DNA from: Varibaculum cambriense
GTDB lineage: Bacteria; Actinomycetota; Actinomycetes; Actinomycetales; Actinomycetaceae
NCBI RefSeq assembly: GCF_002848005.1
Contig: NZ_PKHX01000008.1
Location: 1-19,156, forward strand
DNA length: 19,156 nucleotides
Direction of reading: 5' to 3'
In this document: positions 5,265 through 19,081 of the stretch, piece after piece
How the letters are laid out: each line of letters begins with the position of its first letter
How positions within the stretch are numbered: position 1 is the stretch's first letter
Program-made: the position numbers and the translations under genes
The notes under the pieces: model-generated
Told to the model about the DNA's origin: nothing
The model's database searches: none
The model's input: only the letters and a program-made list of their open reading frames with translations

Positions 5265-5293
5265 TGTAGCCCCAGCAAATCGCTAGGGCTACA
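5265..5293. terminator. Stem-loop between convergent GNAT and lipoprotein genes
   Basis: TGTAGCCC pairs perfectly with GGGCTACA, with AGC/GCT extending the stem around a short loop. It lies between two convergent genes, the expected place for a shared terminator, but neither side has a good T-run. Confidence 0.4.
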
Positions 5294-5316
5294 AGGTCTT
5301 AAACGTTCAGCTTAAC

Positions 5317-5847
5317 TTAGCACGGCCAGGTCTTACCCTCGCTGTCGAAACAGAATTTACTGTGGACTTCGTTTTCGCTGGTACGTGTCCATCTAGCGCC
5401 GCCGTAGTCCTTACTCTCCCCGACTTTCCATTCCCCGGAGTTGCCAGACTTGGCTTTAGTACCGGAGCGGCGAGGAGCCTGATAGTGCCGTTTAGGCTGC
5501 GCCTTACGCTGGTAACTACGTGCTTTCGGCTGATAGCTACGCGCCTTGGGTTGAGCTTTCACCGGGGCGGGTGCTTTAGCTTTAGCAGCAGCCTGTGCTT
5601 GAGCTTCCTGCTCAGCTTTCGCCTTTGCTTCCGCCTCAGCTTTAGCTTCTTGTTCCGCCTTGGCTTTAGCTTCCTTTTCTGCTTTCGCTTTAGCTTCCTT
5701 TTCCGCCTTCTGCTTTTGCTTTTCCACCTGAGAAACAGACGGCGGTTTGGGGGTATCTTCCGCCTTCTTATCAGTGGAAGAACACCCCGCCACACCAAAT
5801 GCTAGTCCAGCGCTGGCAAGTACGATAAGTAGTTTTTGAGTTTTCAT
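5317..5847 (-). CDS. Small lipoprotein with Ala/Lys/Glu coiled coil (module copy 1)
   Basis: A 176-aa lipoprotein. MKTQKLLIVLASAGLAFGVAGC gives a type II signal with lipobox VAGC (lipidated Cys22). Residues about 41-93 are a TolA-like run of AKAEKEAKAKAE-type repeats, expected to form a long helix. A basic segment follows with a PKARSYQ tandem repeat, then a short C-terminal domain (GEWKVGESKDYGGARW) ending with two cysteines, CFDSEGKTWPC. It is paralogous to the gene at 17619-18146: near-identical first 20 residues, the same architecture, and a conserved leader and promoter region. ATG is preceded by AAGAAAGGA/AGGA. It is divergent from the small protein at 6025. Function is unknown; envelope spacing, surface exclusion or mating-related roles are possible but unsupported. 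The low-complexity middle gives a spurious long plus-strand frame. Confidence 0.85.
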   Translation of the reverse strand: MKTQKLLIVLASAGLAFGVAGCSSTDKKAEDTPKPPSVSQVEKQKQKAEKEAKAKAEKEAKAKAEQEAKAEAEAKAKAEQEAQAQAAAKAKAPAPVKAQPKARSYQPKARSYQRKAQPKRHYQAPRRSGTKAKSGNSGEWKVGESKDYGGARWTRTSENEVHSKFCFDSEGKTWPC

Positions 5848-5886
5848 TTTTCCTATCCTTTCTTGGGGTCTTAATGTTCCCTCACC

Positions 5887-5920
5887 ACTTACGTAGGGCG
5901 CACGAGTAAAAACCCAGGTG
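5887..5920 (-). promoter_or_regulatory. GCGCCCTACRTA motif (copy A), upstream of lipoprotein 1
   Basis: The gene strand reads GGGTTTTTACTCGTGCGCCC followed by TACGTAAGTGG, then GTGAG; TACGTA would fit a -10 element about 48 bases before the ATG. Copies precede lipoprotein 2 (18187-18220), the YqaJ operon (12787-12818) and the 78-aa gene (13058-13090). This is too long and too specific for an ordinary promoter and suggests a dedicated activator, operator or sigma factor. Confidence 0.55.
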
Positions 5921-6024
5921 AAAGCTGCTTTAAGCCTAGTATATACGATGAGGAAACTTTAAGAAAGAGGCTTGGCGAATGAAATGTGGGGGTTGTGCCC
6001 GCGCCATATATAGGAAGTATGGAT

Positions 6025-6255
6025 ATGCAATTGGAAACTGAGGTTTTACGCCGGGTGATGCTTGGCGAGCTGAAAGCACCCGTACTAGACGCGAACGGGG
6101 ACGCTCCGCTCACCTGCATGGCGGAAACAGACACCTTGGGTGAGTTGCTGTATCGGTTGGAAAGTGTCGGCGGGCGCAGTAACGTCTACGTCCAGCGGAC
6201 AGATGGAACTATCGCCACGCTAAGCGTCGCCGAAGTAGTCCCCGGAACAAACTGA
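6025..6255 (+). CDS. Small conserved protein, lone partner in lipoprotein module copy 1
   Basis: About 76 aa, beginning MQLETEVLRRVMLG. The frame is open from a GTG at 5986, but the ATG at 6025 has AGGAAG eight bases upstream and lines up with the start of the conserved region in the paralogue at 18682-19071. The two share EVL-x-x-VMLG, then D-x-NG, and a later LL-x-R-x-E-x-x-GG segment, so they are clearly homologous, though this copy lacks the roughly 50-residue C-terminal extension. It probably has an alpha/beta fold, no signal peptide and no known motif. Its end overlaps the convergent Fic gene by 36 bases. Family and function are not recognised; the recurring divergent pairing with the lipoprotein is the only functional clue. 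Confidence 0.65.
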   Translation: MQLETEVLRRVMLGELKAPVLDANGDAPLTCMAETDTLGELLYRLESVGGRSNVYVQRTDGTIATLSVAEVVPGTN

Positions 6256-7053
6256 GTCGTACAGCAGCCCAGCGATAACGGAGGTATCTAGGTTCCGGAA
6301 CAGCCGGTTTAGCCCTTCTTGGTATTTGCCGCGCACGCTTGCCGGGATATAGATAGCGTCTATTCCCTCGTTCAGTAGTAGCCCGCTTGCCATTAGCCTA
6401 GAAGTTCTCTTGTTGCCGTCCCCGAAAGCCTGCAACAAGGTCAGGGCGCAAAACGTATAGGCTGCACCTTCTAGCGGATTAGGTTCTTGCTTCGCCCGCT
6501 CCAATATCTTTTCGTATGCGTCCTCTAGGTCGTTTTCATTCCCGTCCGGTGCGCTATATTTTGCCCCCATCGCCAGGCTGACGTGTCCCCCGCCGTGAGT
6601 TACGCCAGTGCCGCGCACTAAGCCCCGGTCTATCACTTCAGCGGTTAGTTGGTAGTTTATTTTCTTTGCAAGCCTTAGATCGAAAGGTTCATTGTTTTTT
6701 AGCGCGATCAACATCTGCTGGTTTGCTTTGTTTATTGCTTTTACTTCCGCCGCTTGCTCTACCTTCATTCCTTCCGGTGTTATGTCGTCCAACAGGGTTT
6801 GTACCTCAGGCAGAGTCACCGGTAGCCCCTCATTTACCGCCATGTCCAGCACCACGAGGTGATGCACTTGCTCGAAGCGATACATTGCTCCCTGCTTACT
6901 TCTTATCTTTGGCGCAAGGGACGGTTTCGGGACGCTAATATCTACGATTTCATCGACACTGGCAGTAAAGACTCCCGGTAGTACCAGCCCGGATTCTTTT
7001 CTTGGCTTTAGTTTTTTGGCGTATTGGTTCGATCCTCTTACGTAAGTGCTCAT
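6220..7053 (-). CDS. Fic/Doc-family protein with Gln in place of the catalytic His
   Basis: 277 aa. The Fic core is recognisable: an N-terminal helical region, the flap that positions the target chain (TGVTHGGGHVS, 149-159), and the active-site loop QAFGDGNKRTSR at 208-219, then a C-terminal helical bundle (GKYQEGLNRLFRNLD). The classical loop is HxFx(D/E)GN(G/K)R; here the first position is Gln208, while the phosphate-binding DGNKR is intact. Fic proteins usually transfer AMP from ATP to a hydroxyl side chain, using that His as base, so this one is either inactive, mechanistically different or of a Gln-type subfamily. The ATG overlaps the stop of the upstream XRE gene by one base (TAATG), so it is the second gene of a coupled TA-like pair. 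I see no obvious (S/T)xxxE(G/N) inhibitory motif. Confidence 0.85.
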   Translation of the reverse strand: MSTYVRGSNQYAKKLKPRKESGLVLPGVFTASVDEIVDISVPKPSLAPKIRSKQGAMYRFEQVHHLVVLDMAVNEGLPVTLPEVQTLLDDITPEGMKVEQAAEVKAINKANQQMLIALKNNEPFDLRLAKKINYQLTAEVIDRGLVRGTGVTHGGGHVSLAMGAKYSAPDGNENDLEDAYEKILERAKQEPNPLEGAAYTFCALTLLQAFGDGNKRTSRLMASGLLLNEGIDAIYIPASVRGKYQEGLNRLFRNLDTSVIAGLLYDSVCSGDYFGDA

Positions 7054-7709
7054 TACTCCCCCTTAATCGCGTCAGCTAGTAGATAGGAGTCGGTTAGGCA
7101 CGCCCCCGTTGGTGCGAACTGGCGAGAAAATCTAAGTTCTATTATTCTTCTTTCCCACATGGCGGGTGGCATTTTCACCAGCAGCGCTTTTGTCCCGTTT
7201 TCGCTTTGTGAGCCAATCTGGCGCGCCTTGTCCAGATCGGATACATAGAACACGGTGGTGGCATTTTTGGCGGTATCCTCTAAATCTTTTTGCACTCCCC
7301 AATCCCCGCTGATTAGCCAATCTACCCCGCTAGCATCTATTAGACCTCTAGCCTCGCTTGGGTCGCTAGCAGCAAGTCGCACCCAAGCGTGACCTCTTTC
7401 AGAAAAAGGAGAATGCCTAGCCACCATGTCTAAGGCAGCGTCGAAGTCACCTAGTCGGTCTAACTCGGACTGGATACGCCCATTTTTCGGCTTCACCTCG
7501 TCAATCAGGTCACATAGAGTTTCTATCCACTCCCAAGGGTTAACCTGCCGCACGCTTAGTTCTAAACCCAGCGTGGACAGCAAGGCCTGTACAGTAGATA
7601 GCTTCGGATCGGTCTTACAGTTTTTTATCCTGGACAGGGTGCTTTTGTCTACCCCAGCAAGGTCGGCGCTGCGCACGTTTTCTAGCGCCTGCCATAAATC
7701 TTGTTGCAT
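7053..7709 (-). CDS. XRE-type HTH regulator, probable antitoxin of the Fic pair
   Basis: About 218 aa from the ATG at 7709 (MQQDLWQALENVRSADLAG). A TTG at 7745 extends the frame but lies inside an operator palindrome and is less likely. Residues about 12-48 form a helix-turn-helix (LAGVDKSTLSRIKNCKTDP, then LSTVQALLSTLGLEL). The remaining 160 residues form a second domain (DWLISGDWGVQ, FYVSDLDKA, then WERRIIELRF) distantly reminiscent of AbiEi-like antitoxin C-terminal parts; this is tentative. It is directly upstream of and coupled to the Fic gene, with two palindromes at its start, so autorepression by a toxin-antitoxin complex is likely. There is little Shine-Dalgarno before the ATG; the mRNA may be nearly leaderless. 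Confidence 0.75.
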   Translation of the reverse strand: MQQDLWQALENVRSADLAGVDKSTLSRIKNCKTDPKLSTVQALLSTLGLELSVRQVNPWEWIETLCDLIDEVKPKNGRIQSELDRLGDFDAALDMVARHSPFSERGHAWVRLAASDPSEARGLIDASGVDWLISGDWGVQKDLEDTAKNATTVFYVSDLDKARQIGSQSENGTKALLVKMPPAMWERRIIELRFSRQFAPTGACLTDSYLLADAIKGE

Positions 7710-7746
7710 ACTTGCAACTTTAGCGCGTTTGTTGCATATATGCAAC
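7703..7746 (-). promoter_or_regulatory. Paired palindromic operators of the XRE-Fic operon
   Basis: GTTGCATATATGCAAC (7731-7746) is a perfect 16-bp palindrome. GTTGCATACTTGCAAC (7703-7718) is the same sequence with near-perfect symmetry. The two are 28 bp apart, and the second contains the ATG of the regulator. This is the expected layout for autorepression by the XRE protein. Confidence 0.75.
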
Positions 7747-8011
7747 CGGGGCTAGTTCAGGCAGCAGACCGAACTTCTGAAACTGGCACATGGCTAAAGA
7801 ACAACGGCTCCCGGCTCAATTCCCCCTCCGATAGCGGGGCGAGAAACTCTTCCTTGCTCATAGGCAACTTCTCGTCTGGATCCGATCCGGGGAAACACCC
7901 AAAACCAGTGACTACCGCCTGGATGGGAGTATCGGTGAGCTGCCCAATCACCAGTTCCCCGTCTTCTACCGCAAGCGATACCAGCTCATCGGGATCAAGA
8001 CCGCGCGTGAG

Positions 8012-8043
8012 GATTCCCCTGGCCTTGTGCTAGGGGAGGAATC
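8012..8043 (+). repeat. Left-end hairpin of the IS element
   Basis: CCCCTGGC pairs with GCTAGGGG (one G-T) around loop CTTGT, with GATT/AATC continuing the stem after a three-base bulge. It is positioned about 10 bases inside the left end, as for the TnpA recognition hairpins of this family. Confidence 0.7.
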
Positions 8044-8096
8044 GCGCATTTACCGGTATTGCTTTCCGATTGCCGGTTTAACGCCTAAGACACAAT

Positions 8097-8501
8097 TTAT
8101 GCTTTTGATTTTTGGTTTTGGATATATCGTTTAATGGTGTCTTCGCTTATGTGTCCGACTGACCCAAAATAGGTTGAGGGTGACCACATTCCTTTGCCCC
8201 AAAACTTGCGCTGTTTTATTTTCGGGTACTTATAAAAGATTCTTACAGCCGATATTGATTTAATAGTTTTCGCTATCTCGGCGGGGCTAATTTGCGGATC
8301 AGCAGTAACAAAGATGTGTACGTGGTCTGGCATTACTTCTATTTCCTCTAGTCCCCACCCGTAGGCGGCGCAAACCTCGGCAATAATGTTTTTGCAGGTA
8401 ACGCCCACTCCTGCTTCTAGGATAGGGCGGCGGAACTTGGTACAAAAAACAATATGATACCCGAGCGCGAAAACCTGGTGAGAATTACTATGTATTTCCA
8501 T
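8097..8501 (-). CDS. tnpA: IS200/IS605-family transposase TnpA (Y1, HUH)
   Basis: 134 aa from the ATG at 8501 (MEIHSNSHQVFALGYHIVFC); upstream in-frame starts at 8510 and beyond are less likely. The HUH metal-binding motif is H60-V-H62 in MPDHVHIFV. The nucleophilic tyrosine is Y126 in TIKRYIQNQ, with Q130 four residues later as in other Y1 enzymes. The length is normal and there is no frameshift. The enzyme dimer cuts and rejoins single-stranded DNA at the two hairpin ends, so insertion leaves no target duplication. It is divergent from tnpB and shares the short region between them. Confidence 0.95.
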   Translation of the reverse strand: MEIHSNSHQVFALGYHIVFCTKFRRPILEAGVGVTCKNIIAEVCAAYGWGLEEIEVMPDHVHIFVTADPQISPAEIAKTIKSISAVRIFYKYPKIKQRKFWGKGMWSPSTYFGSVGHISEDTIKRYIQNQKSKA

Positions 8502-8525
8502 GCAATACATGGTATCATTGATTCT

Positions 8526-9731
8526 ATGAATACCAGTTCTAGGCTGCACCAACGCACCCTTAGCGTGCGTCTAGACATGGATAAATCCGACCTGGAACTG
8601 TTTCAAAAAGTGATCGGAGAATATAACCGGCTTTGGGGCGATATAGCCTCTTGGTGTAATGAGAATCAGACCGTAAATAGGACTAGGCTCCAAAAAAGCC
8701 TTTACCATAAGGCAAGGAAAAAGTACCCTGATCTTCCAGCCCAGTTTGTTTGTATAGCCTTAAGAGATGCAGCCGGGGCTGTAAAAAGTTGGAACTCGAA
8801 CAATAAACGTAAAAGATGGCAGTTAAAACCCCTCCGCCGCAAGCAAACGATTAACTATGACCGGCGAATCATGGCCCTACGAGGAAACCTCCTAACCTTA
8901 TCCACTCTTACTTTCTATGACCGATTTAAGGCTTTAATCGACCTGCCTGAATGGTTCTTTGAACGCTACCCAGGGGCAAAAATAAATGCCGCGAAACTAT
9001 CCCTGAAAAATGGTTACGCCATTATCCACCTAATCTACCGGGCAAACCCCACCACCACTTGCACAGGCACGCAAGTTGTGGGGATAGACCGGGGAATACG
9101 AAACATTATTACTACCTCGAAAGGAGGTGAATACTCTAGCGCTAAGGTGAGGGGAATAAAACGCAAGTATGCACATAATAGGGCTACGCTCCAGGCAAAA
9201 GGCACTCGCTCGGCAAAAAGACGCTTAAAAGCAATCTCCGGGCGAGAAAAGCGGTTCATCTCGGACGTAAACCACCAAATATCCAAAACCTTAGCAAAAG
9301 ACCCGGAAGTAAAAACCTACGTCCTAGAAGACCTATCCACAATGAACGATAAAAGAAAAAAGTCATCTAGGAAGGCAGGAAAACAGCTGCGTTCGTGGCT
9401 ATCGAACTGGTCATACGCGGAACTAGAATTTTTCCTGACCTACAAATGCGACTTTGTAGGAAAAACCGTAGAACTCGTCCCCGCAGCCTTCACATCCCAA
9501 AGATGCAACAGGTGCGGGTTTACGGACAAGAAAAACAGAAACGGCGCAAGGTTCGACTGCAAACAATGTGGCCACTCAGCCCATGCAGACCATAACGCCG
9601 CAAAAAATATCCGGGACAAATACCTCTTTGCTATCGACAGCAAAGCAGGGCGTAGTCAATCGCCCACATGGATGGAAAGCCTAAAAAACTTTCACGTCCA
9701 AGCCCCGCCCCTCGTGGGCGTGGGTAATTGA
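8526..9731 (+). CDS. tnpB: TnpB, RNA-guided RuvC-like nuclease of the IS element
   Basis: 401 aa from the ATG at 8526 (MNTSSRLHQRTLSVRL); the frame is open upstream to 8454, but that part overlaps tnpA. The RuvC triad is present: D188 in VGIDRGIRNI, E268 in YVLEDLS, D355 in HADHNAAKNI. The zinc finger is CNRCG (327-330) with CKQCG (about 345-348). The length is typical. TnpB uses an RNA from the right end of its element (omegaRNA) to cut DNA next to a short motif matching the element's insertion site, which helps keep the element after excision. The stop codon lies at the element border. It seems fully functional. Confidence 0.95.
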   Translation: MNTSSRLHQRTLSVRLDMDKSDLELFQKVIGEYNRLWGDIASWCNENQTVNRTRLQKSLYHKARKKYPDLPAQFVCIALRDAAGAVKSWNSNNKRKRWQLKPLRRKQTINYDRRIMALRGNLLTLSTLTFYDRFKALIDLPEWFFERYPGAKINAAKLSLKNGYAIIHLIYRANPTTTCTGTQVVGIDRGIRNIITTSKGGEYSSAKVRGIKRKYAHNRATLQAKGTRSAKRRLKAISGREKRFISDVNHQISKTLAKDPEVKTYVLEDLSTMNDKRKKSSRKAGKQLRSWLSNWSYAELEFFLTYKCDFVGKTVELVPAAFTSQRCNRCGFTDKKNRNGARFDCKQCGHSAHADHNAAKNIRDKYLFAIDSKAGRSQSPTWMESLKNFHVQAPPLVGVGN

Positions 9732-9732
9732 C
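9600..9732 (+). ncRNA. Predicted omegaRNA scaffold at the TnpB right end
   Basis: Inferred from family knowledge: the 3' end of tnpB and the right end form the guide-RNA scaffold, with the guide read from the flank. The hairpin CCCCGCCC-CTCGT-GGGCGTGG (9703-9723) just before the border supports this. The first guide bases would be ACGGAAGATACTCGC from 9733. The start coordinate is approximate. Confidence 0.45.
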
Positions 9733-9861
9733 ACGGAAGATACTCGCTTTCCTTTTCCACTATTTTTTCGGGAAACGCAATATAGATGCAGCTACCAAGT
9801 AGTTTGCCGTTTTTGTCTGCAACTGCCGAGCAGCACTCATAGCATTTCTTCATTTTTCTTT

Positions 9862-10320
9862 TCATTTTGTCTCCTTTTTTAAAGTGTTTTCTTTTGCGCT
9901 GGGGTTCACCTCGACTTGTCTGTTGTTGCTGGTTTGGACTATCTGCGATTTGCCAGTTTTCCTCGCTTCTAGCCGTGCGGCTTTGAATTTGCGCATATAT
10001 GGTAGTTGGATTGATAGGTTACTGGCTGTGCGGTATCCCAAGGCTTCGGCTATCGCTGTTTGTGGGAGTCCGGCGGCCATTGCTTCGCCTGCCCACCAGT
10101 TTGCATAGTCATCTGCCATTTGCTTGAACACTCGGTAGGCGGCTAGTCGCGCAATGCTTTTAGGCACACCAAAGGTATCTTCGAGGCTTTCTCCGGCTAC
10201 GCCCAATGCGTCTGGCAGGGCGGACATCAGCAGTCGTTTCTGTATGTAGTCCGCCATTTTTTCCATGTGCTCGTCGTTGGCTCTTGCTCTTCTTAATGGT
10301 TCCGGGTCATATCCTGCCAT
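9862..10320 (-). CDS. Hypothetical protein with probable HTH
   Basis: 152 aa, beginning MAGYDPEPLRRARANDEHME. The central part is helical (ARLAAYRVFKQMADDYANWW). MAAGLPQTAIAEALGYRT at about 82-99 looks like a helix-turn-helix, followed by a basic segment (KFKAARLEARKTGK) and a disordered tail. It overlaps the previous gene by 14 bases and the next (IS-interrupted) gene by 4 (ATGA), so it is in the middle of the coupled operon. A DNA-binding role is a guess from the HTH-like segment; no family is recognised. Confidence 0.7.
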   Translation of the reverse strand: MAGYDPEPLRRARANDEHMEKMADYIQKRLLMSALPDALGVAGESLEDTFGVPKSIARLAAYRVFKQMADDYANWWAGEAMAAGLPQTAIAEALGYRTASNLSIQLPYMRKFKAARLEARKTGKSQIVQTSNNRQVEVNPSAKENTLKKETK

Positions 10321-10645
10321 TTTCTGCCTCTTCCTTTCCTAGTTGCGTCAGCTCATACCTGATGTCGAGCACGGATTTAGGGATGCTGGCCAATTCGACT
10401 TGCGCCTGCGCGGCCTTGTCATTTAGCCAGGCGAGCGCGTTCTCCATATCTGCCGGGTCTGTAAAAATTGACTCGTAGGTGTCGTATTCTCCTGCGTACG
10501 GGGTGCAGGTTTCCATAGCCTTGTGTACGCATTCCAAAGCGGTGCCGAGTTGGCTTTGCGCAGCACGGATACTTCCAGCGGCGAACATAAGCGCGCGCCA
10601 GATTCGGTCTTGCGGGGTTGCCATGCGCGGATCAGGTTCAGTCAT
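10307..10645 (-). CDS. Hypothetical small helical protein (tandem family member)
   Basis: 112 aa, almost entirely helical, with no signal peptide. An N-terminal DRIWRALMFAAGSIRAAQ segment resembles ERIWSCLRVILCDIDAAQ of the gene at 10903-11217 and LDRLWTIESY of that at 11214-11531. It starts inside the end of the previous gene (8-base overlap), at a junction AGAAAATGAC that recurs in this operon. The C-terminus is KEEAENGRI. It may derive from tandem duplication followed by divergence. Function is unknown. Confidence 0.7.
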   Translation of the reverse strand: MTEPDPRMATPQDRIWRALMFAAGSIRAAQSQLGTALECVHKAMETCTPYAGEYDTYESIFTDPADMENALAWLNDKAAQAQVELASIPKSVLDIRYELTQLGKEEAENGRI

Positions 10646-10910
10646 TTTCTACTACCTTTTTGATTAGTAGTTCTTGGAGGTCGTGGACAAGGCTGTTAAT
10701 CTGGTCAGCAATTGCCATAGTCTGACTTGCCCCTCCCCCTATTAAGCCTGCTAGTGCCTGCAATTGGGTTGGTTCCGGGGTCCCCAGGCATTCCTCTAGC
10801 TCTTTGGCCATATCTGATAGAGAGAGCGTGAACTGACGTTGATTATCGAGGTTGCTCAGGATGTTCCGCGCCTTAGAGGTTATATCTGCGTCTAGTTCGT
10901 GGTTAGTCAT
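10638..10910 (-). CDS. Hypothetical small helical protein
   Basis: 90 aa from the ATG at 10910 (MTNHELDADITSKARNILSN), chosen because GGAG lies seven bases upstream; an ATG at 10922 would add four residues (MEQK). It is helical with a Gly-rich turn (LIGGGASQTM) and ends KKVVEND, like NGAEND of the upstream gene. It overlaps both neighbours by 8 bases. No family is recognised; possibly a divergent member of the adjacent helical set. Confidence 0.65.
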   Translation of the reverse strand: MTNHELDADITSKARNILSNLDNQRQFTLSLSDMAKELEECLGTPEPTQLQALAGLIGGGASQTMAIADQINSLVHDLQELLIKKVVEND

Positions 10911-11217
10911 TTTCTGCTCCATTTCTCATCTGGTTTAGCGCTCCACGGATTAAGCGCGTGTATCGGTGTATATCGGTAAGGTCTGCGGCGGCGCTGTCAG
11001 CAGCGTTTTCTAGCGCCTCGATTCTTTTCTCAAACTCGATGGGGTCGTCATCGACGAATTGGAGTCCGTTCTCGGGTGAGAGTTTCCAAAAAAACCTGGA
11101 CGTGTCGAGTATTATTTCTATTATTTCGGAGCTGGTGTCTTGTGCTGCGTCTATGTCGCAGAGAATGACGCGTAAGCATGACCAGATACGCTCTATGGAC
11201 TGTTTATCGGTAATCAT
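10903..11217 (-). CDS. Hypothetical small helical protein (tandem family member)
   Basis: 104 aa, starting MITDKQSIERIWSCLRVILC. The (D/E)R(I/L)W segment near the N-terminus followed by long amphipathic helices resembles the proteins at 10307-10645 and 11214-11531. It overlaps the upstream stop by 4 bases (ATGA) and ends NGAEND over the start of the next gene. It has no membrane or signal segment and is acidic overall. Function is unknown. Confidence 0.7.
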   Translation of the reverse strand: MITDKQSIERIWSCLRVILCDIDAAQDTSSEIIEIILDTSRFFWKLSPENGLQFVDDDPIEFEKRIEALENAADSAAADLTDIHRYTRLIRGALNQMRNGAEND

Positions 11218-11531
11218 TTTTTACCTCCCGGCTTACGATTTTGGGTTTTCTCGATTTTCGTCATGATCTCGCCTAGCTCCTGGATGACCTGGTGGTGACC
11301 TATCGCCCAGTCTTCCAACCGATAAGCGGCATCTAGTAGGGCGTTCAACTTTTCTATGCTCTCCTCAAACCCCCGAGGAAAATCTTCGAGGACGTTTTTT
11401 AGTCCTCCTAAGGCAATGTCGGATTCTTCGCGACAAGAAATTATTTCGTTCTGATAGCTTTCGATAGTCCAAAGACGATCAAGCGCGTCATCTAGCAATT
11501 TCTTCTCGCTAATCGGTTTCTTAGCGGTCAT
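11214..11531 (-). CDS. Hypothetical small helical protein (tandem family member)
   Basis: 105 aa, helical (coiled-coil-like IEKLNALLDAAYRLEDWAIG) with a basic C-terminal tail (NRKPGGKK). DALDRLWTIE near the N-terminus parallels the ERIW and DRIW segments of its two relatives. It starts three bases after the XRE gene stop, using a GAGG inside the end of that gene. Function is unknown. Confidence 0.7.
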   Translation of the reverse strand: MTAKKPISEKKLLDDALDRLWTIESYQNEIISCREESDIALGGLKNVLEDFPRGFEESIEKLNALLDAAYRLEDWAIGHHQVIQELGEIMTKIEKTQNRKPGGKK

Positions 11532-11534
11532 CTT

Positions 11535-11762
11535 CTATTCCACCTCGATCTCGTATTTAAGTTTCACCCCGACCGCATCCAGGTATTTTGCCAGGGTGTC
11601 GGTGCGGATATTGGCTCCGCGTTTTTCGATATTGCACACTTGGGTGGGGGTGCTACCCATTTTTTCTGCAACCTCGCCCTGGCTTAGACCCTTTATTTTC
11701 CGGATGCGGCGAAGGTCGGCCACCAGGTCAGAGATACCACCAGTATTGGAAACAGTTATCAT
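11535..11762 (-). CDS. Small XRE-family HTH regulator
   Basis: 75 aa from the ATG at 11762 (MITVSNTGGISDLVADLRRI). The frame extends to 11894 but that part lies within the YqaJ gene. The HTH is canonical: LSQGEVAEKMGSTPTQVCNIEK-type helices, then DTLAKYLDAVGVKLKYEI, as in HigA-like and phage regulators. It starts 16 bases after the YqaJ stop, with GCGAGGCGG upstream. No toxin-like partner of the HigB/RelE type is adjacent; it may regulate the operon itself or the shared upstream motifs. Confidence 0.85.
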   Translation of the reverse strand: MITVSNTGGISDLVADLRRIRKIKGLSQGEVAEKMGSTPTQVCNIEKRGANIRTDTLAKYLDAVGVKLKYEIEVE

Positions 11763-11778
11763 TGCTATACCGCCTCGC

Positions 11779-12708
11779 TTATACAGCCTTCCGAACAGGC
11801 GAAACGTTTGGTGCGTAGAAGCCACCTTTGGGGTTTTTCCGGGCAGATAGCCTGAAGGTTTTCTCCGTTCCGATATAGCCGAACTCTGCCCCACCGAGTG
11901 CGTCTATCAAGCGGGCTTTTGCCCCGGTAAGTGCCTTGTCTGCTAGTTTCTTTTCTTCGTCGGCCATAAAATAAGCCTCAGCTAGGTCTTCATCTACCTG
12001 TACTTTTTGCCCATAGTCAATATCTTTGGATAGTTCGCGTACTACCTGGAAAGTCGAGTTTGAATCATCAATGGAGGGTTCTTCCCCGTTTTTCAAGGTT
12101 TCGATGAACTTTTCACCGGCCTCTACCATTTTGGCGCAAAAGTCAGTATCCTTTTCGATCTCGTAGATGCGCACGTCCCCAAAGCCGATCAAAGCAATCA
12201 GGAATGCTTTATCTAGCTTCAAAGCGTTTAAGTACCACTGCACCTGGCACATATAATGCTCAGGGATATTACCCTTGCCCTGCTTTTCCCTACCCCACTG
12301 CCAAGCGACAGACGGGTCAACGGTTTTAATCTCCAGCACGCCCGCAAGGTTCCCGGCATTATCGGTTAGCAGCCTATCCGGCTCAGCCAAGGCAATTTCG
12401 CAATCTTTAAACTGGTACATACCCGTCTTGTGGCAAATATAGCCTGTTTCATCCTCGAAAATCTTTGCGGCCACGTCCTCTAGGCCCAGCCCGATCCGGG
12501 AGCGGTTTTCGTCCATTTGACCGGGTTCAATATTGCCCGCTTTTTCATGCCAAAGCCGAAACAGTGACTTATACGGGCTTAGCCCCATGACGATAGCGAT
12601 TTCCGAGCCGCCAAGACCTTTCTCGCGCATCTTGTGCCAGTTCTTCGAGCCAGCACGAGGCCTCCCAAGATAAATAGCGTCTACTAGATCCTCGATCTTT
12701 CCCTTCAC
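11779..12708 (-). CDS. YqaJ-type viral recombinase/exonuclease
   Basis: 309 aa, GTG start at 12708 with GAGGAG upstream. Motifs of the lambda-exonuclease/YqaJ nuclease fold are present: GLGGSEIA (31-38), GLGLEDVA (about 73-80), AEPD with D111, the EIKT catalytic pair at 126-129, and YMCQVQWYL (152-160). Such enzymes digest one strand from DNA ends and normally work with a single-strand annealing protein (RecT/Bet/Erf), but none is recognisable next to it. The C-terminal part is a helical extension (DEEKKLADKALTGAK). First gene of a long coupled operon, with its own copy of the GCGCCCTACAT motif 87 bases upstream. Typical of phages and of conjugative elements. Confidence 0.9.
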   Translation of the reverse strand: MKGKIEDLVDAIYLGRPRAGSKNWHKMREKGLGGSEIAIVMGLSPYKSLFRLWHEKAGNIEPGQMDENRSRIGLGLEDVAAKIFEDETGYICHKTGMYQFKDCEIALAEPDRLLTDNAGNLAGVLEIKTVDPSVAWQWGREKQGKGNIPEHYMCQVQWYLNALKLDKAFLIALIGFGDVRIYEIEKDTDFCAKMVEAGEKFIETLKNGEEPSIDDSNSTFQVVRELSKDIDYGQKVQVDEDLAEAYFMADEEKKLADKALTGAKARLIDALGGAEFGYIGTEKTFRLSARKNPKGGFYAPNVSPVRKAV

Positions 12709-12786
12709 CTTTGTCTCCTCTCATTCTGCGAAGCAAACCCCGCGCCAAGGCACGAGGTTAAGCCCTTTAGTTTTGGAACTCTCACT

Positions 12787-12818
12787 TCCCATGTAGGGCG
12801 CGAAGGCAAAAACCCTGT
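12787..12818 (-). promoter_or_regulatory. GCGCCCTACAT motif (copy C), upstream of the YqaJ operon
   Basis: The gene strand reads GGGTTTTTGCCTTCGCGCCC, then TACATGGGAAGTGAG. It shares the T-run, CGCGCCCTACAT and the downstream GTGAG with the copies before the two lipoprotein genes, at the same internal spacing. It leaves a leader of about 80 bases before the GTG start. Confidence 0.55.
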
Positions 12819-13055
12819 TCAGCTTTGCAACTCTTTTATCGCCTCGCATAGGTGGATCAAAGCCTTATCGACTTTCTTGTAATCCTTACTGCCCTTAATC
12901 GTCTGGTTCTTAGCGGCTATCGCTACCGCCATCTTGGTGAGGTGACCGCCTAGCTTTTCGGCGGTAAGAGACGGCTTCTTCTTTTCCACGCCGTGAAAAG
13001 TAGTGCTTTTGTTTTTCCCGATAAATGGCAGCGGAATCTGAGTTTTTGTATCCAT
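12819..13055 (-). CDS. Hypothetical 78-aa basic protein
   Basis: The ATG at 13055 begins MDTKTQIPLPFIGKNKSTTF. The N-terminal 30 residues are disordered and Lys-rich; the remainder is helical (LTKMAVAIAAKNQTIKG, ALIHLCEAIKELQS). No family is recognised. The putative promoter motif D ends only about 12 bases before the ATG, and AAGAGG sits too close to be a normal ribosome site, so the mRNA may be leaderless. It lies between the adhesin terminator and the YqaJ operon promoter, making it a stand-alone gene with the same upstream motif as its neighbours. Confidence 0.6.
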   Translation of the reverse strand: MDTKTQIPLPFIGKNKSTTFHGVEKKKPSLTAEKLGGHLTKMAVAIAAKNQTIKGSKDYKKVDKALIHLCEAIKELQS

Positions 13056-13057
13056 GC

Positions 13058-13090
13058 CTCTTATGTAGGGCGCGCGTGGTTTTGACAGAA
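13058..13090 (-). promoter_or_regulatory. GCGCCCTACATA motif (copy D), upstream of the 78-aa gene
   Basis: The gene strand reads CAAAACCACGCGCGCCCTAC, then ATAAGAGGC directly before the ATG. It keeps the GCGCCCTACATA core of copies A-C but has a weaker T-run and lacks the GTGAG end. If TACATA is the -10 element, transcription would start almost at the start codon. Confidence 0.5.
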
Positions 13091-13106
13091 ACAGGAAAGA
13101 ACGGAC

Positions 13107-13153
13107 ACAAAAAGTCCCTCCCTACCAGCTTTTCGGCTAGTAGGGAGGGACTT
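13107..13153 (-). terminator. Strong Rho-independent terminator of the adhesin gene
   Basis: A perfect 14-bp stem (AAGTCCCTCCCTAC with GTAGGGAGGGACTT) around a short loop, followed on the minus strand by TTTTTGTG, 29 bases after the adhesin stop. Confidence 0.9.
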
Positions 13154-13181
13154 GGAAGGGTTTTCCAAAATAGCTTAAGGG

Positions 13182-16100
13182 CTACATCGTGGTTTTGCGT
13201 CTATAGGCAACCACCCCCGATCCGGCTCCCGCGAGCATTAGGCAAGTAAGCAATGCCAGCATGGAGGTGGCACCCGTCTTGGCCAGTCCCCCACCTTTAG
13301 CTACGCCTTTGCCGTTCCACGGGTCAGAAGCAGATACCTGCTTGCCCGAATAGAAACTCTTACCGGTCACGGTTGCAATGTCGGTGTGAGTTTCACCAGG
13401 CTTAACACCAGTCAAGTTTCCTTCACAGGTGACTTCTTCCCCAACTTTTAGACCTTTGGCAAGACCATCCGGGCATTTAATGTCCTGGATATGGCCAGAG
13501 CCTTTGACGGTCTTATCGGCTAGCTTCACATCCACCAAGGGAACATCACCAGTGTTCTTAATGGTAAACATGATGACCTGGTTGCCCTTAACGGTTAGCG
13601 CGTCCTTTTCCTGGTTGCGGTCCCCGGATTCTTTTCCAGAATCCTTATCCCATTTCACGATTGAAATAGCGGGATTTTCCGGGGTTCGGGTCACCACTTC
13701 GTTAGAATCGCGTTTAACGCCGTTGTAGGTTTCGGTGTGCTTGTTCTTAATGGTGCCCACGCTAATGCGGCGCATCCCTATATAGGCGCTCCAGCCCTGC
13801 TCGCTAGCCATCGACTTATCAGTGTTAACCAGATCGAACAGGTCCTTTTGGGCTTCGATAGTTACGATCCCGCCCTTTTCGGTCACCTTGAAGTAGGTTT
13901 TACCGTCGGAAGTAGCAGCCTTCTTCAAATCATTAAAGTTCAGCACCGAGCCAGCAGGCAGAACTTTTTCTTTACCTGCAAACACATCAGCGGTCACCTT
14001 AGCGGAAGAATCGGTAATCTTAAAGACAGCCTTATCGGCTTGCTTAATATTATCGCCCTTCTTCAAAACAACTTTACCGCCAGAGGTAAGATCTACCTTC
14101 GCGTTCAAATACTCTCCGTTTGCCTCAAATACTTCGGCTAGAGGATTTACAGCCTTGGCGATGGTAGAGCCTTTAGCGAACACGACTTTCCCGTTTTCAT
14201 CGAAAATGTCACGTTCGGCAAGCACGCTCCACTGACCGGTATATTGGTCTGCCTTCTCGTTGTAATCATCGGTGATAGACCACTGGCTAGTCTTGTTCGC
14301 CCTGGCTGCGGGCAAAATAGAACTCGACAGCTTGTAGGCAAATACTCCATCTAACTTAACAGTAGAGTTGTTAATCGACTTAGCATCAGCCTTAGCATCA
14401 ATAACTACGTCCTTCTTCGGATTGATCTCCTTTAAGGGGTTGTGTACCACGTTGGTTACTTGGCGCATATTCTCTAGGTTTTGGATAGCCTGGTTGCGGA
14501 TAACATATCCGTCCTTAGACTTCTTAACCTGAGTGATGAGGTAGACCCAATACTTATGCCCCATCAGGCCCTGGTCAATGATCGGGTCCTGGTCGGGTTT
14601 GATCGGTGCCTTATCGTAAGCCTCCAAATCGCTTGGCTGCGGATCACCCTTGATTGTCACGCCTTCTTCATTGGTGTAATCATGGGTCTTAGCGAAAGCG
14701 TAAGCCTTACCATTCTTAACCTGGATATTGAACTCACCCGTCACGTCCTTACCGGTGTCTGCTTGAATAATCTTTACCCCGGAAGCGGTGAGGTTCAAGT
14801 ATTCTTCATCGTAGTCATCGGTAATTCCGAGCTTGTGTACCCAATAGGCCAGTTTGTTCTTGCTATCAGCGTTTGCTGGTAGCGGAGAAGCATCCAAGGT
14901 TACCCGGTAAACAATCTTGTCACCAGTAATAACGGTCTTGCCGTTAATATCCTCGCCCGCCTCGTTAAGGTCTTCCTTTAACGGTTTAGTGGGCGGCACT
15001 TCGTTGGTTACCCAGTTAGTCGGGGTAGTTGAATCATTAACTACCTGGAATGCCTGGTTCTTAACTTTAGTGCCAGCGGCAATGGAATCGCTTACCTTCC
15101 CATCAAAGGTGAGGGTTAGCCAATCAGGGGTGTTAGCTGCTGCCTTATCCATGTGGGAGGTGTTCTTAGCTTCTTTGTCCATCCATTCTTTAGAGAACGA
15201 GATAGTGAAAGAATGCTTAGCGTCATCGAAGACGATCTTGTACTGGCTGCGCGGGATAACCCGAGAGCGGTTCCGGTTGTCAACAATCTTGATCGACTTC
15301 TTGTTCAAAATGAAGTTCTTGTCGTAATTGTCAACAATGTCGAATCGCTTCAACTCGTATGCCCGGTCCGTATTGTTAGGCAGGTTCATGTCCACGCCTA
15401 CGCGGTATTGCAGTTTTTGTCCCGGCAACACCTTGTTCTCGTTAATGGACTGATCCGTGTTCGGGCCAGCTTGTCCGGCCTGACCTAGCACGTCCTTATC
15501 GGGCTTGGGGTTCCAGATAAACACGGGAGGAACGTTGGTTTCAATCTCCTCATTATTATAGATTTCCGCGCCCTCGTTAAACAGCTTGATCGTATCCCCA
15601 TGAGTATTGGTTTGCTCATTTACCGGATAGAACTTGCCCTCAATCACGAGCTTTACGGGAACGTCAGCTTTAAGCAGCTTAGTACCAGCAGTAAGGATAC
15701 CCCCGTCTTTTAACGCGCCCTCCTTGGCGGTAGCAATGGTTTTAGTTCCTTCAGTCTTAAAATCGAAGAACTTAGTCTTGTCTTCCCATTTACCGGCGAC
15801 AGAAACATAAACCTTCGCACTTTCATGGGCCTTGGTAAAGTCAACATATTTTGCTGCTTTTGCCCAGTTATCAATAAGTACGTAACGGTCTAGGTTGTCA
15901 TCCATGTTTGCCGGGAAGTGACCGTTAACAACGGCCCCAACCTTGTCATTATGGTTGAAGGTTTTTTGGTCCGCGCCCACGTTATTGGTTTTTTGCGGGT
16001 CATTTACGTCCCAGACAAGCGAGCCATCCTTATTTAGTACCCAGGCCTTGTTCGGGTCGGGGACTTCCTTGTTGATTTCTTTCTTTTCGCTTTCCTCACA

Positions 16101-17492
16101 AACCTTACGGTCAGTGTCCCAACAGGTCTTGCCCACGTTTTGAATGTTTTCCTTGACTTTGGTGGGTTTCGGAGCGGTCGGTACGTTCAAGGTAAACCAA
16201 CCCGGAGCCGCATCTTTAACTACCGCTTTGACGATTCGTTTGCCATCCTGGGAATCGTCTACCTTAATATCGGCAGCGACTTTACTGCCCTTTTCGTCGG
16301 TTACATAAATCTTGGAAAAATCATCCTTTTCCTTATCCCCAATGAACACATTCTTGGAAAGAATCACGTCCGAGATTTCCACGCTGGTTGCACCGCCCGT
16401 ATGGGCCTTAATCTTGGCCAGATATGGCATGGCGCTAACCACTACCTCTTTGGGGTCAAGCAGCCGCCCATTAATGTCGTGCATAGTCTTTACCGGCGGC
16501 GGAGGCTTCAAAGTGAAAGTCTCACTCGCTACCCTATCGGGGGTATCTACCGCTTTAGCCATAGCTTTTTGGCGACCAACCTTAATGTCATACCAGTATT
16601 TACCTGCTGCCCAGCTAGTCCATCCAAAATCCTTAGGGGTAAAAGTCGGACTATTTGCAGTGCCGATACTGCTAATATCCATAGCCTTGGTAACAGCCTT
16701 AGCCTTACCGCCATAGTAGCCGTCCCAATTGAGCACGACCGAGGCTTTGAGCGCTTCCTTCACGGATGTACCTTTAGCGGAGGTACGAATCTGGTCATGG
16801 ACCGCCTGGGCCCCGCCAGCAACGCCAGGAGAAGCCTGCGCTGCGGTAGCCACCTGAAGCTCATACCCCTCAGGCTCAAACTCATTTAGAGCAATACAAA
16901 CCGCGCGTGCCCCAGTAGGGTGAGCCGCAGCCGTAGCATTAGCCTCAGCTAGGCCAACCTTGTAAATAGAATTAATGGTCTTCGCGTTATGTCCAGGGAA
17001 AGTACCCGGAGTTTTAGCAGCGTTCCAAGCCCCCGGATAATGAGCAACGTATTCCTTACCGTTAGCACCGTAAGATACCCACTTACCTTTGTTTTTTCTC
17101 ACCCCCATATATAGGCCAACTACGCGAGCTTTCTTGGCCTTGCCACCAGAGCGCGCAATCGCCCGCTGCAAAGCAGTATTACAAGCCGGATCAGCCCACT
17201 GGTGTATCTGCTTTTGCACCATCGCTCCGCCAACGAAAGCGTTTAGCCGGTTAACAAAATAGTTAGTGGAGGCTTGCCCCCAACCCTGAACCGGGTTAGC
17301 ACGCCGCCCCAAGTTATCTCCCATCACGAATACGTAATGAGAGGGGCCGGTGCCAGACCCGCCACTTCCCCCACCAGTTCCCCCTGCACCAGGATTATAT
17401 ATTCCGTCAGCATATGCCGGAATCGCTGCTCCTAGGCCTACCGATACACCGGCAGCAATAGTAAGCAGCGTCTTAGCAAACCTGTGTCTCAT
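13182..17492 (-). CDS. Large multi-domain LAKTG-anchored adhesin
   Basis: A 1436-residue secreted, wall-anchored protein. Signal peptide 1-28 (ends PAYA), then a Gly/Ser linker, an N-terminal domain (about 48-215) with two cysteines (ADPACNTALQ and RAVCIALNEF) that probably form a disulfide, and a Pro-rich break (LKPPPPVK). Four beta domains of the AgI/II adhesin isopeptide type follow, each marked by a D-(N/D)-(Y/W) motif: IDNWAKAAKY (about 541), VDNYDKNF (about 722), TDDYDEEY (about 892), TDDYNEKADQ (about 1075). A DUF11-like domain (FTIKNTGDVPLVDVKL, about 1275-1395) precedes LAKTG at 1403, a membrane helix and YRRKTTM. Such proteins mediate adhesion or, on conjugative elements, cell aggregation during transfer. 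ATG follows AAAGGGCG; a strong terminator follows the stop. The ligand is unknown. Confidence 0.88.
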   Translation of the reverse strand: MRHRFAKTLLTIAAGVSVGLGAAIPAYADGIYNPGAGGTGGGSGGSGTGPSHYVFVMGDNLGRRANPVQGWGQASTNYFVNRLNAFVGGAMVQKQIHQWADPACNTALQRAIARSGGKAKKARVVGLYMGVRKNKGKWVSYGANGKEYVAHYPGAWNAAKTPGTFPGHNAKTINSIYKVGLAEANATAAAHPTGARAVCIALNEFEPEGYELQVATAAQASPGVAGGAQAVHDQIRTSAKGTSVKEALKASVVLNWDGYYGGKAKAVTKAMDISSIGTANSPTFTPKDFGWTSWAAGKYWYDIKVGRQKAMAKAVDTPDRVASETFTLKPPPPVKTMHDINGRLLDPKEVVVSAMPYLAKIKAHTGGATSVEISDVILSKNVFIGDKEKDDFSKIYVTDEKGSKVAADIKVDDSQDGKRIVKAVVKDAAPGWFTLNVPTAPKPTKVKENIQNVGKTCWDTDRKVCEESEKKEINKEVPDPNKAWVLNKDGSLVWDVNDPQKTNNVGADQKTFNHNDKVGAVVNGHFPANMDDNLDRYVLIDNWAKAAKYVDFTKAHESAKVYVSVAGKWEDKTKFFDFKTEGTKTIATAKEGALKDGGILTAGTKLLKADVPVKLVIEGKFYPVNEQTNTHGDTIKLFNEGAEIYNNEEIETNVPPVFIWNPKPDKDVLGQAGQAGPNTDQSINENKVLPGQKLQYRVGVDMNLPNNTDRAYELKRFDIVDNYDKNFILNKKSIKIVDNRNRSRVIPRSQYKIVFDDAKHSFTISFSKEWMDKEAKNTSHMDKAAANTPDWLTLTFDGKVSDSIAAGTKVKNQAFQVVNDSTTPTNWVTNEVPPTKPLKEDLNEAGEDINGKTVITGDKIVYRVTLDASPLPANADSKNKLAYWVHKLGITDDYDEEYLNLTASGVKIIQADTGKDVTGEFNIQVKNGKAYAFAKTHDYTNEEGVTIKGDPQPSDLEAYDKAPIKPDQDPIIDQGLMGHKYWVYLITQVKKSKDGYVIRNQAIQNLENMRQVTNVVHNPLKEINPKKDVVIDAKADAKSINNSTVKLDGVFAYKLSSSILPAARANKTSQWSITDDYNEKADQYTGQWSVLAERDIFDENGKVVFAKGSTIAKAVNPLAEVFEANGEYLNAKVDLTSGGKVVLKKGDNIKQADKAVFKITDSSAKVTADVFAGKEKVLPAGSVLNFNDLKKAATSDGKTYFKVTEKGGIVTIEAQKDLFDLVNTDKSMASEQGWSAYIGMRRISVGTIKNKHTETYNGVKRDSNEVVTRTPENPAISIVKWDKDSGKESGDRNQEKDALTVKGNQVIMFTIKNTGDVPLVDVKLADKTVKGSGHIQDIKCPDGLAKGLKVGEEVTCEGNLTGVKPGETHTDIATVTGKSFYSGKQVSASDPWNGKGVAKGGGLAKTGATSMLALLTCLMLAGAGSGVVAYRRKTTM

Positions 17493-17539
17493 GCTTTAGC
17501 GCCCTTTCGCTGTCCAAAATGGGAGGAGTATTTCTCCTT

Positions 17540-17562
17540 CCGTAATTGGTAATGCGTCAAAA
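17540..17562 (-). promoter_or_regulatory. ACGCAT-type upstream motif, adhesin gene
   Basis: The gene strand reads TTTTGACGCATTACCAATTA, then CGG, about 50 bases before the ATG. It matches the motifs before the other two large surface-protein genes (843-865 and 3824-3846) in the ACGCAT core and the following TACC. Confidence 0.45.
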
Positions 17563-17601
17563 GCAAAAAGGCAGGCCAGGCACAAAAACCTGACCTGCCT
17601 T
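17563..17601 (-). terminator. Rho-independent terminator of lipoprotein 2
   Basis: On the minus strand AAGGCAGGTCAGG pairs with CCTGGCCTGCCTT (one G-U), and the stem runs into TTTTTGC. It lies 18 bases after the lipoprotein stop and directly before the adhesin promoter region. Confidence 0.85.
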
Positions 17602-17618
17602 AAAGAAACGAAAAGCTA

Positions 17619-18146
17619 CTAGCAATTACCTCCTACGCACACGATTACGCCACTGGTGTCTCTTTCCAATTCCGGGTGCGCATTCATATCTTTTGCGATA
17701 CTTTCGCCTAGTCTTCTATTGAAATCATCATTAGAGATGCCCCCGCCGCCTCCGCCACGGCGAGCCCTCGGACGGGACTTGTAATTGTAGCTGCCACGGG
17801 CTTTACCCTGCCGATAGTTAGAGCGTGCCTGAGGCTGATAGTTGCGTCCCGATGTACCAGAACGCGCTGCCGTCCCAGAACCAGCCTGAGCTTGAGCTGC
17901 TGCCCCAGCTTGGGCTTCTGCTTCAGCCTTCGCCTTAGCTTCCGCCTCAGCTTTTGCCTTAGCTGCGTAGTCACGGGCAATCTTCTTATCGCGCTCAGCG
18001 TTTAGCACCTGCTTTTCTCTATCCATATCTGAGATAGTCGGAATCTTATAAGTAGGAGCGCTCGCATCAGCATTACCTGCGCACCCAGCAAGACCCAGCC
18101 CTAGCGCCGCGCTTGCAAGTACAACCATAAGTTTTTGAGTTTTCAT
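17619..18146 (-). CDS. Small lipoprotein with Ala/Lys/Glu coiled coil (module copy 2)
   Basis: 175 aa from the ATG at 18146 (MKTQKLMVVLASAALGLGLAGC). The frame extends 14 residues upstream, but the leader conservation with copy 1 and the ribosome site AAGAAAGGA mark this start. Lipobox LAGC gives lipidated Cys22. Next comes a charged helix (about 44-75) shorter than in copy 1, an Ala/Gln/Gly stretch, a basic Tyr/Arg/Gln segment (NYQPQARSNYRQGKARG), a run of six glycines, and a C-terminal domain (ISNDDFNRRLGESIAKDMNA) ending with two cysteines, CVGGNC. It is paralogous to 5317-5847; the ends are conserved in plan while the middle has diverged, as usual for low-complexity linkers. Divergent from the operon at 18287. 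Function unknown. Confidence 0.85.
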   Translation of the reverse strand: MKTQKLMVVLASAALGLGLAGCAGNADASAPTYKIPTISDMDREKQVLNAERDKKIARDYAAKAKAEAEAKAKAEAEAQAGAAAQAQAGSGTAARSGTSGRNYQPQARSNYRQGKARGSYNYKSRPRARRGGGGGGISNDDFNRRLGESIAKDMNAHPELERDTSGVIVCVGGNC

Positions 18147-18186
18147 TTTTCCATTCCTTTCTTCGGGTCTAAATGTTTCCCTCACC

Positions 18187-18220
18187 ACCTATGTAGGGCG
18201 CGAGGGTAAAACCCAGGTGG
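18187..18220 (-). promoter_or_regulatory. GCGCCCTACATA motif (copy B), upstream of lipoprotein 2
   Basis: The gene strand reads GGGTTTTACCCTCGCGCCCT, then ACATAGGTGGTGAGGG. It is flanked by CCACCT/AGGTGG, an inverted repeat only partly kept in copy A. Position relative to the ATG (about 49 bases) is the same as in copy A. On the other side, a block (GCATGAGAGGATTTTAAGAA at 18242-18261, then AGGGG) is shared with copy 1 (from about 5947) and leads toward the plus-strand genes. Confidence 0.55.
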
Positions 18221-18286
18221 AAACCTTATAGCCATTGTATCGCATGAGAGGATTTTAAGAAAGGGGAATTTTGTTAAGATTTCCAT

Positions 18287-19071: not shown

Positions 19072-19081
19072 GAAAGCGCTT

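What the first reader, a model, noticed from the sequence alone, without database searches (positions are those of the whole stretch)
5887..18220. A shared long motif (core GCGCCCTACATA) precedes four separate transcription units
Seen directly at 5887-5920, 12787-12818, 13058-13090 and 18187-18220, always on the gene strand and upstream of a start codon. Three copies share the T-run, the CGCGCCCTAC core and a GTGAG at fixed spacing. The genes served (two lipoproteins, a YqaJ operon, a 78-aa gene) are unrelated, so descent by gene duplication explains only A and B. A dedicated regulator or sigma factor controlling an element-wide regulon is the best explanation; no known consensus is matched.
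Basis: partly seen in the sequence, partly recalled or inferred. Interest (0 to 1): 0.72.

Follow-up and report, generated by a model that had tools for sequence, protein, structure and literature searches.

The report
Shared non-standard promoter in Varibaculum DNA
Five gene units in one 19-kilobase stretch of Varibaculum-like bacterial DNA carry the same unusual short sequence just before them (four strong copies, one weaker), and this is likely a promoter that would be read by a dedicated, still unidentified transcription factor, so that otherwise unrelated genes could be switched on together.

Summary
The repeated motif is real. Four near-identical sites (A 18183-18214, B 5883-5915, C 12783-12815, D 13055-13073, minus strand) lie directly before genes, and I found a weaker fifth, E (6001-6021, plus strand). 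A matrix made from the homologous pair A/B alone ranks C and D next in the window (0 of 300 shuffles reach either); E is weaker (102 of 300 in that test). A and B sit in one 189-bp homologous block; C, D and E show no such homology. All five have promoter geometry: GCGCC(C/A), TA(C/T)(A/G)T(A/G), 6 nt, purine. In D and E that purine is the A of an ATG, so those mRNAs are predicted to be leaderless. D's motif lies in the 56 nt between a strong terminator and its ATG, which hold no TAnnnT box. The base at -7 is never T, unlike housekeeping promoters. Best reading: a promoter class read by a dedicated sigma-like factor (inferred, not found). A weak housekeeping promoter with an activator remains possible. 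The DNA is Varibaculum-like, but no closely related locus or genome could be fetched, so the scope (mobile element or whole host) is open.

The parts
18181..18214 (-). Site A: GGGTTTT, GCGCCC, TACATA, 6 nt, predicted start G at 18183; upstream of lipoprotein A
5881..5915 (-). Site B: GGGTTTT, GCGCCC, TACGTA, 6 nt, predicted start G at 5883; upstream of lipoprotein B
12781..12815 (-). Site C: GGGTTTT, GCGCCC, TACATG, 6 nt, predicted start G at 12783; upstream of the YqaJ operon, just after the stop codon of the 78-aa gene
13053..13073 (-). Site D: GCGCCC, TACATA, 6 nt, then the ATG of the 78-aa gene (predicted leaderless); no GGGTTTT
5988..6021 (+). Site E (new, weaker): GCGCCA, TATATA, 6 nt, then the ATG at 6019 (predicted leaderless); divergent from site B
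13112..13153 (-). Strong intrinsic terminator-like hairpin (18 pairs) after the adhesin gene, which would isolate the D promoter
17619..18146 (-). Lipoprotein A gene (175 aa)
5317..5847 (-). Lipoprotein B gene (176 aa), paralogue of A (37% identity over 151 aa)
12819..13055 (-). 78-aa gene served by D; no Pfam, NCBIfam or PHROG match
11779..12708 (-). YqaJ-type recombinase gene, first gene of the C unit
11535..11762 (-). Small XRE-type HTH protein (75 aa) in the C unit; candidate regulator, untested
9862..10320 (-). 152-aa protein, last gene of the C unit; best match is named as Varibaculum cambriense (94%)
6019..6255 (+). 78-aa gene served by E; paralogue of the 129-aa gene at 18682-19071

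Best explanation
The motif is likely the core promoter of at least four, and probably five, transcription units, predicted to be read by RNA polymerase carrying a dedicated specificity factor (most likely an alternative sigma factor) that has not been found. Shown: the shared block GCGCC(C/A)-TA(C/T)(A/G)T(A/G)-N6-purine before five starts; its statistical strength (weakest for E); no TAnnnT box at the right place for any of the five predicted starts; a terminator-like hairpin just before site D. Inferred: the factor would read the contiguous -18 to -7 block GCGCCCTACATA; the GGGTTTT stretch at about -32 to -25 in A, B and C (GGGGGTTGT in E, absent in D) would be a -35-like or activator contact that raises strength; transcription would start at 18183, 5883, 12783, 13055 and 6019, giving leaders of 37, 36, 75, 0 and 0 nt, so D and E would make leaderless mRNAs. 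Its effect would be to switch on a recombinase operon, two lipoproteins and two small proteins together.
For: Five sites, one geometry: G at -5, -2 and +3 in 5 of 5; purine at +1 in 5 of 5. Independent recovery: A+B alone retrieve C and D at ranks 3 and 4, 0 of 300 shuffles each. A/B homology covers 189 bp at 77%, A/C only 34 bp, A/D only 13 bp, and the window's comparison with itself at E 1e-3 shows no block joining C, D or E to another site, so gene duplication explains only A and B. Site D: the 56 nt from terminator stem to ATG contain the motif and no TAnnnT. In Corynebacterium glutamicum about 97% of mapped starts have TAnnnT 3-11 nt upstream and about 33% of assigned mRNAs are leaderless (PMC3890552, passages); here 0 of 5 predicted starts have TAnnnT there and the base at -7 is A or G in 5 of 5. 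Best match to TTGACA at spacers 15-20 is 2-4 of 6. None of the 15 sigma-70-like pairs falls on any of the five sites.
Against: No sigma factor over a family cut-off was seen among the window proteins scanned (20 against Pfam; 10 against NCBIfam); the 75-aa XRE protein has only a sub-threshold Sigma70_r4 match (15.9 bits, cut-off 24.1). The factor is hypothetical. Absence of TAnnnT is the usual state of a random position (only 10.8% have one), so it argues only if the predicted start is right. TACATA was proposed as a SigA -10 at one C. glutamicum promoter (sigH P4; PMC3489674, passage). TAnnnT boxes do lie elsewhere in the upstream stretches examined: 4 in A (114 nt, one within the motif's T-run and spacer), 2 in B (113 nt), 1 in C's leader (110 nt), 2 in E (98 nt), 0 in D (56 nt); in A and B one of these has a 3-of-6 -35 box. 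D lacks GGGTTTT. E is not significant when only A and B train the matrix (102 of 300) and B drops to rank 6 when C, D and E train it; E also has an alternative ATG at 6025 with a well-spaced GGAAG (sequence). No relative carrying the motif was found.
Confidence: 0.48

Rival explanations
1. Activator-dependent housekeeping promoters: TACATA is a poor -10 for the main sigma factor, and an activator binding the GGGTTTT...GCGCCC stretch over the -35 region rescues it, as class II activators do.
For: TACATA was proposed as a SigA -10 once in C. glutamicum (PMC3489674, passage). SetCD of SXT/R391 elements is an element-borne activator that binds a 19-bp site near the -35 of its genes (PMC4344509, abstract). 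Two HTH proteins of the XRE type are encoded in the window.
Against: The non-consensus purine at -7 is conserved in 5 of 5, where an activated housekeeping promoter would be expected to keep T; D lacks the GGGTTTT part yet keeps the -18 to -7 block.
Confidence: 0.25
2. Operators: the motif is a repressor binding site (for example of an encoded XRE protein) and the promoters lie elsewhere.
For: TAnnnT boxes occur elsewhere upstream of A, B, C and E, in A and B with a weak -35; XRE genes are present; A contains the short inverted repeat GGGT-TTT-ACCC (seen in the sequence).
Against: No inverted repeat with exact arms of 5-12 and loop of at most 12 from -45 to +12 in A, B, C or D; E has one with arms of 5. 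D has no TAnnnT between terminator stem and ATG. The motif keeps one orientation and one distance to a purine.
Confidence: 0.13
3. An RNA element or translation signal in the 5' leader.
For: D and E place the motif right before the start codon; stretches around A and E fold somewhat better than shuffles (z -1.6 each).
Against: z-scores -1.6, -0.04, -0.1, -0.8 and -1.6 for A, B, C, D and E, with different folds as judged by eye; no covariation test was run. In A, B and C the predicted start lies 36-75 nt before the start codon. No Rfam match over the gathering score at the sites.
Confidence: 0.04
4. Scope rival, compatible with the best explanation: the motif belongs to a host-wide Varibaculum regulon and the window merely samples it, rather than being an element-specific system.
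For: Nothing in hand limits the motif to a mobile element; the window also carries surface adhesins and lipoproteins.
Against: Four to five sites in 19 kb would be dense for a host-wide alternative sigma regulon (inference).
Confidence: 0.35

Closest known systems
Start-associated sequences (SAS/ESAS) of cluster K mycobacteriophages
   Same: A short asymmetric motif repeated before many different genes of one actinobacterial mobile genome, mostly in one orientation (PMC3203893, passages)
   Different: SAS is GGGATAGGAGCCC near the start codon (PMC12699233, passages), and none lies in the window at up to 2 mismatches; ESAS are 17-bp imperfect inverted repeats, not seen at these sites by a limited search; the present motif has promoter geometry
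SetCD regulon of SXT/R391 integrative elements
   Same: One element-borne switch acting at several promoters of one element (PMC4344509, abstract)
   Different: SetCD binds near the -35; here the best conserved block is -18 to -7 and no regulator is known
Housekeeping sigma-A promoters of Actinobacteria
   Same: Hexamer starting TA, 6 nt before a purine start, leaderless mRNAs common (PMC3890552, passages)
   Different: No TAnnnT at the predicted place, no -35, strongly conserved GCGCC(C/A) directly upstream

Membership tests
Actinobacterial sigma-A promoter | TAnnnT 3-11 nt upstream of the start | tested here: not met
   0 of 5 predicted starts; the starts are predicted, not mapped
Actinobacterial sigma-A promoter | TTGnCA-like -35 at 16-19 nt (weak in C. 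glutamicum) | tested here: not met
   best 2-4 of 6 matches to TTGACA at spacers 15-20
ECF (SigE/SigH), SigB/SigF, WhiG/FliA promoters (consensus recalled) | GGAA-N16-20-GTT; GTTT-N12-17-GGGTA; GCCGATAA | tested here: not met
   no exact match from -50 to +12 at any of 5 sites
LexA box (consensus recalled) | GAAC-N3-5-GTTC | tested here: not met
   0 of 5 sites, exact match only
SAS/ESAS of cluster K phages | GGGATAGGAGCCC, up to 2 mismatches | tested here: not met
   0 in the window, both strands
SAS/ESAS of cluster K phages | paired imperfect 17-bp inverted repeats | tested here: inconclusive
   only exact arms of 5-12 with loops up to 12 were sought: none at A-D, one with arms of 5 at E
Alternative-sigma regulon | a cognate sigma factor gene | tested here: inconclusive
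   none over a cut-off among 20 window proteins against Pfam and 10 against NCBIfam; the gene at 3-809 was not scanned; the rest of the genome is not held
Alternative-sigma regulon | starts at fixed distance from the motif, lost when the factor is removed | not testable with these tools
   needs RNA mapping and a deletion strain

The most novel reading that the evidence does not exclude
A new promoter class: a contiguous GCGCCC-TACATA block read by an undescribed RNA polymerase specificity factor carried by a Varibaculum mobile element (an unrecognised sigma-like protein, or even a phage-type single-chain polymerase), which fires a recombinase operon, lipoproteins and leaderless small genes as one switch.
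Probability: 0.25. Interest if true: 0.68.

Novelty: new variant of a known kind. Interest (0 to 1): 0.45.

Why it matters
Little seems to be in the open literature on transcription signals in this group: a search of the held open papers for 'alternative sigma factor' with 'Actinomycetaceae' and 'promoter' gave 0 papers, and 'Varibaculum' with 'sigma factor' gave 2, neither about its promoters by title. A promoter class tied to a set of unrelated genes gives a direct handle on what switches this region on, and the two predicted leaderless genes give exact starts to test.

Tried and rejected
Relatives: genome-contig scans with the YqaJ protein and with TnpB found no relative (18 and 23 stretches matched a pattern, none confirmed). 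Viral scans with YqaJ (no stretch), the AgI/II adhesin (11 stretches), the 129-aa protein (12) and the 152-aa family (6) confirmed none. Megablast of 15,357 of the window's 19,156 bases (3800-19156) against plasmids and phages: no match. P0001, one relative of the 152-aa protein, against plasmids and phages: none. Single proteins do have distant homologues: YqaJ in 88 plasmid and 399 phage records, the VaFE adhesin in 29 and the AgI/II adhesin in 393 plasmid records, each with a best place under 60% identity. Of these only two stretches were fetched (L002, L003), and neither holds a motif-like site: best matrix scores 11.1 and 11.5, against 22.0 for E with the same matrix.

Distant blastn of site A gave weak hits in 100 plasmid and 18 phage records at E up to 10; of the 10 listed in each, the lowest E is 0.8 and 0.3, all in unrelated organisms.

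Motif scans of viral contigs: 1, 2 and 21 stretches. The three I judged chance from reading the sequence and from the lack of similarity to the window (L001 looks like phage coding sequence; L004 and L005 are near-identical to each other). Of the 21, all carry one match each, 20 lie inside an ORF of 60 aa or more on one strand or the other, and none of L001-L026 shows DNA similarity to the window at E 1e-3; several of the 21 are near-copies of each other.

RNA-element idea: no shared fold by eye. Sigma-70 promoter scan: at chance level in the window (15 found, 16.6 expected). The 152-aa protein as regulator: a fair model (pLDDT 82.5) but no structure match better than E 0.39, so it says nothing. 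Literature: GCGCCCTAC with 'promoter' gave 32 papers; of the 15 listed, none is about such a motif by title.
Full report
What was checked. All four are in the sequence as stated. The window DNA belongs to Varibaculum or a very close relative: the 152-aa product of 9862-10320 is 94% identical to a protein named as Varibaculum cambriense, and the only other relative with a source name is also V. cambriense (24 proteins found, 2 with a source name). No genome is held for the window.

Is it more than chance. The bare core is not convincing alone: some 9-mer reaches four or more copies in all 100 shuffled windows, some 12-mer reaches three copies in 4 of 100, and the 12-mer with up to 3 mismatches is at its chance level (15 found, 15.3 expected). 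The longer block is. A 21-column matrix from A-D scores 30.2-34.7 at the four sites, 20.1 at a new site E on the plus strand at 6001 (0 of 200 shuffles), 15.1 at one position inside the Fic gene (7 of 200) and 5.0 or less everywhere else. Because A and B are homologous, the fair test trains on A and B only: C and D then rank 3 and 4 in the window, above all of 300 shuffles; E ranks 5 but is reached by 102 of 300. Trained on C and D, A and E are reached by 0 and B by 1 of 300. Trained on C, D and E, B falls to rank 6 (2 of 300). In all six trainings other than A+B that tested E it is reached by 0-3 of 300. E therefore rests on the C/D type of site and is the weakest member.

Origin of the copies. 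A and B sit in a 189-bp block of 77% identity that includes the leader and signal peptide, and their lipoproteins are 37% identical over 151 aa. A and C share only 34 bp and A and D only 13 bp; the window's comparison with itself at E 1e-3 shows no block joining C, D or E to another site. The lipoprotein loci also share a divergent neighbour family: the E gene and the 129-aa gene at 18682 are 35% identical over 71 aa. No E-like site before the divergent neighbours of locus A is among the 14 best matrix hits, so E has no counterpart at the other copy.

Anatomy. Counting from a start placed 6 nt after the hexamer, the five sites read GCGCC(C/A) at -18 to -13, TA(C/T)(A/G)T(A/G) at -12 to -7, and in 5 of 5 G at -5 and -2, a purine at +1 and G at +3. 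D and E are therefore predicted to be leaderless, which is common in at least some Actinobacteria (about 33% of assigned mRNAs in C. glutamicum; PMC3890552, passages). The predicted leaders of A, B and C are 37, 36 and 75 nt. Upstream, A, B and C carry GGGTTTT at about -32 to -25, E a weaker GGGGGTTGT, D none.

Why a promoter. Site D lies in the 56 nt between an 18-pair terminator-like stem (13153-13112) and its ATG. That stretch has no TAnnnT box, the box found for about 97% of mapped C. glutamicum starts. None of the five predicted starts has one 3-11 nt upstream, though a random position lacks one 89% of the time, so this is an argument about the named hexamer and not a test by itself. Such boxes do lie elsewhere in the upstream stretches examined: 4 for A, 2 for B, 1 for C, 2 for E, 0 for D. 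The -7 base is A or G in 5 of 5. Nothing at -35 resembles TTGACA closely (2-4 of 6). Consensus strings of ECF, SigB/F, WhiG/FliA, LexA and the cin-box (recalled) do not occur at any of the five sites.

Mechanism. I commit to a promoter class read by a dedicated specificity factor, most likely an alternative sigma factor. Shown: motif, geometry, the hairpin before D. Inferred: the starts, leaderless D and E, the factor, the shared switch. Against it: no sigma factor over a cut-off among 20 window proteins against Pfam and 10 against NCBIfam, with only a sub-threshold Sigma70_r4 match in the small XRE protein (15.9 bits, cut-off 24.1); TACATA has been proposed as a SigA -10 at one C. glutamicum promoter (PMC3489674, passage); A and B have a TAnnnT box with a 3-of-6 -35 further upstream. 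An activator acting with the housekeeping sigma factor at a poor -10 is therefore a serious rival, and SetCD of SXT/R391 shows that elements do use such switches (PMC4344509, abstract).

Scope. Whether this is an element regulon or a host regulon is open. Motif scans of viral contigs gave what I judge chance matches (1, 2 and 21 stretches). No close relative of the window was reached in any collection; only distant homologues of single proteins were, and the two such stretches fetched hold no motif-like site. The window looks mobile (YqaJ recombinase, IS200/IS605 genes, toxin-antitoxin-like pairs), but no integrase, relaxase or replication gene was seen among the proteins scanned.

Comparison. 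The nearest described thing in kind is the SAS/ESAS motif set of cluster K mycobacteriophages (PMC3203893 and PMC12699233, passages): a repeated motif before many different genes. The sequence differs (0 SAS matches in the window at up to 2 mismatches), and SAS sits near the start codon, whereas the present motif keeps a fixed distance to a predicted transcription start. I file it as a new variant of a known kind: a shared promoter or regulon motif of a probable mobile region.

Noticed in passing
5138-5205 (-): Rfam DUF3800-IX RNA (RF02968, 56.6 bits, cut-off 36.8), between the GNAT gene and lipoprotein B, overlapping the end of the GNAT gene on the other strand.
   Followed up: no
851-863, 3832-3844 and 17548-17561 (-): The leaders of the three surface-protein genes share another short sequence, TTTACGCATAGCC, TTTACGCATTACC and TTTGACGCATTACC, a possible second shared signal; no chance test was run.
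   Followed up: partly
9862-11531 (-): Small genes of unknown function in the C unit; relatives P0022 and P0024 look like fusions of the 104-aa and 152-aa genes, as if the operon were trimmed by recombination.
   Followed up: no
4020-5155 (+): Panacea-domain antitoxin-like gene followed by a GNAT acetyltransferase, a likely toxin-antitoxin pair.
   Followed up: no
6220-7745 (-): Fic-domain protein beside a 230-aa XRE protein.
   Followed up: no
8097-9731: IS200/IS605-type transposase (-) divergent from a TnpB nuclease (+).
   Followed up: no
19090-19156 (+): TATAAT followed by GGGCCCTACATT near the window end, a 2-mismatch core match outside the genes listed; its RNA fold is unremarkable (z -0.24).
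   Followed up: partly
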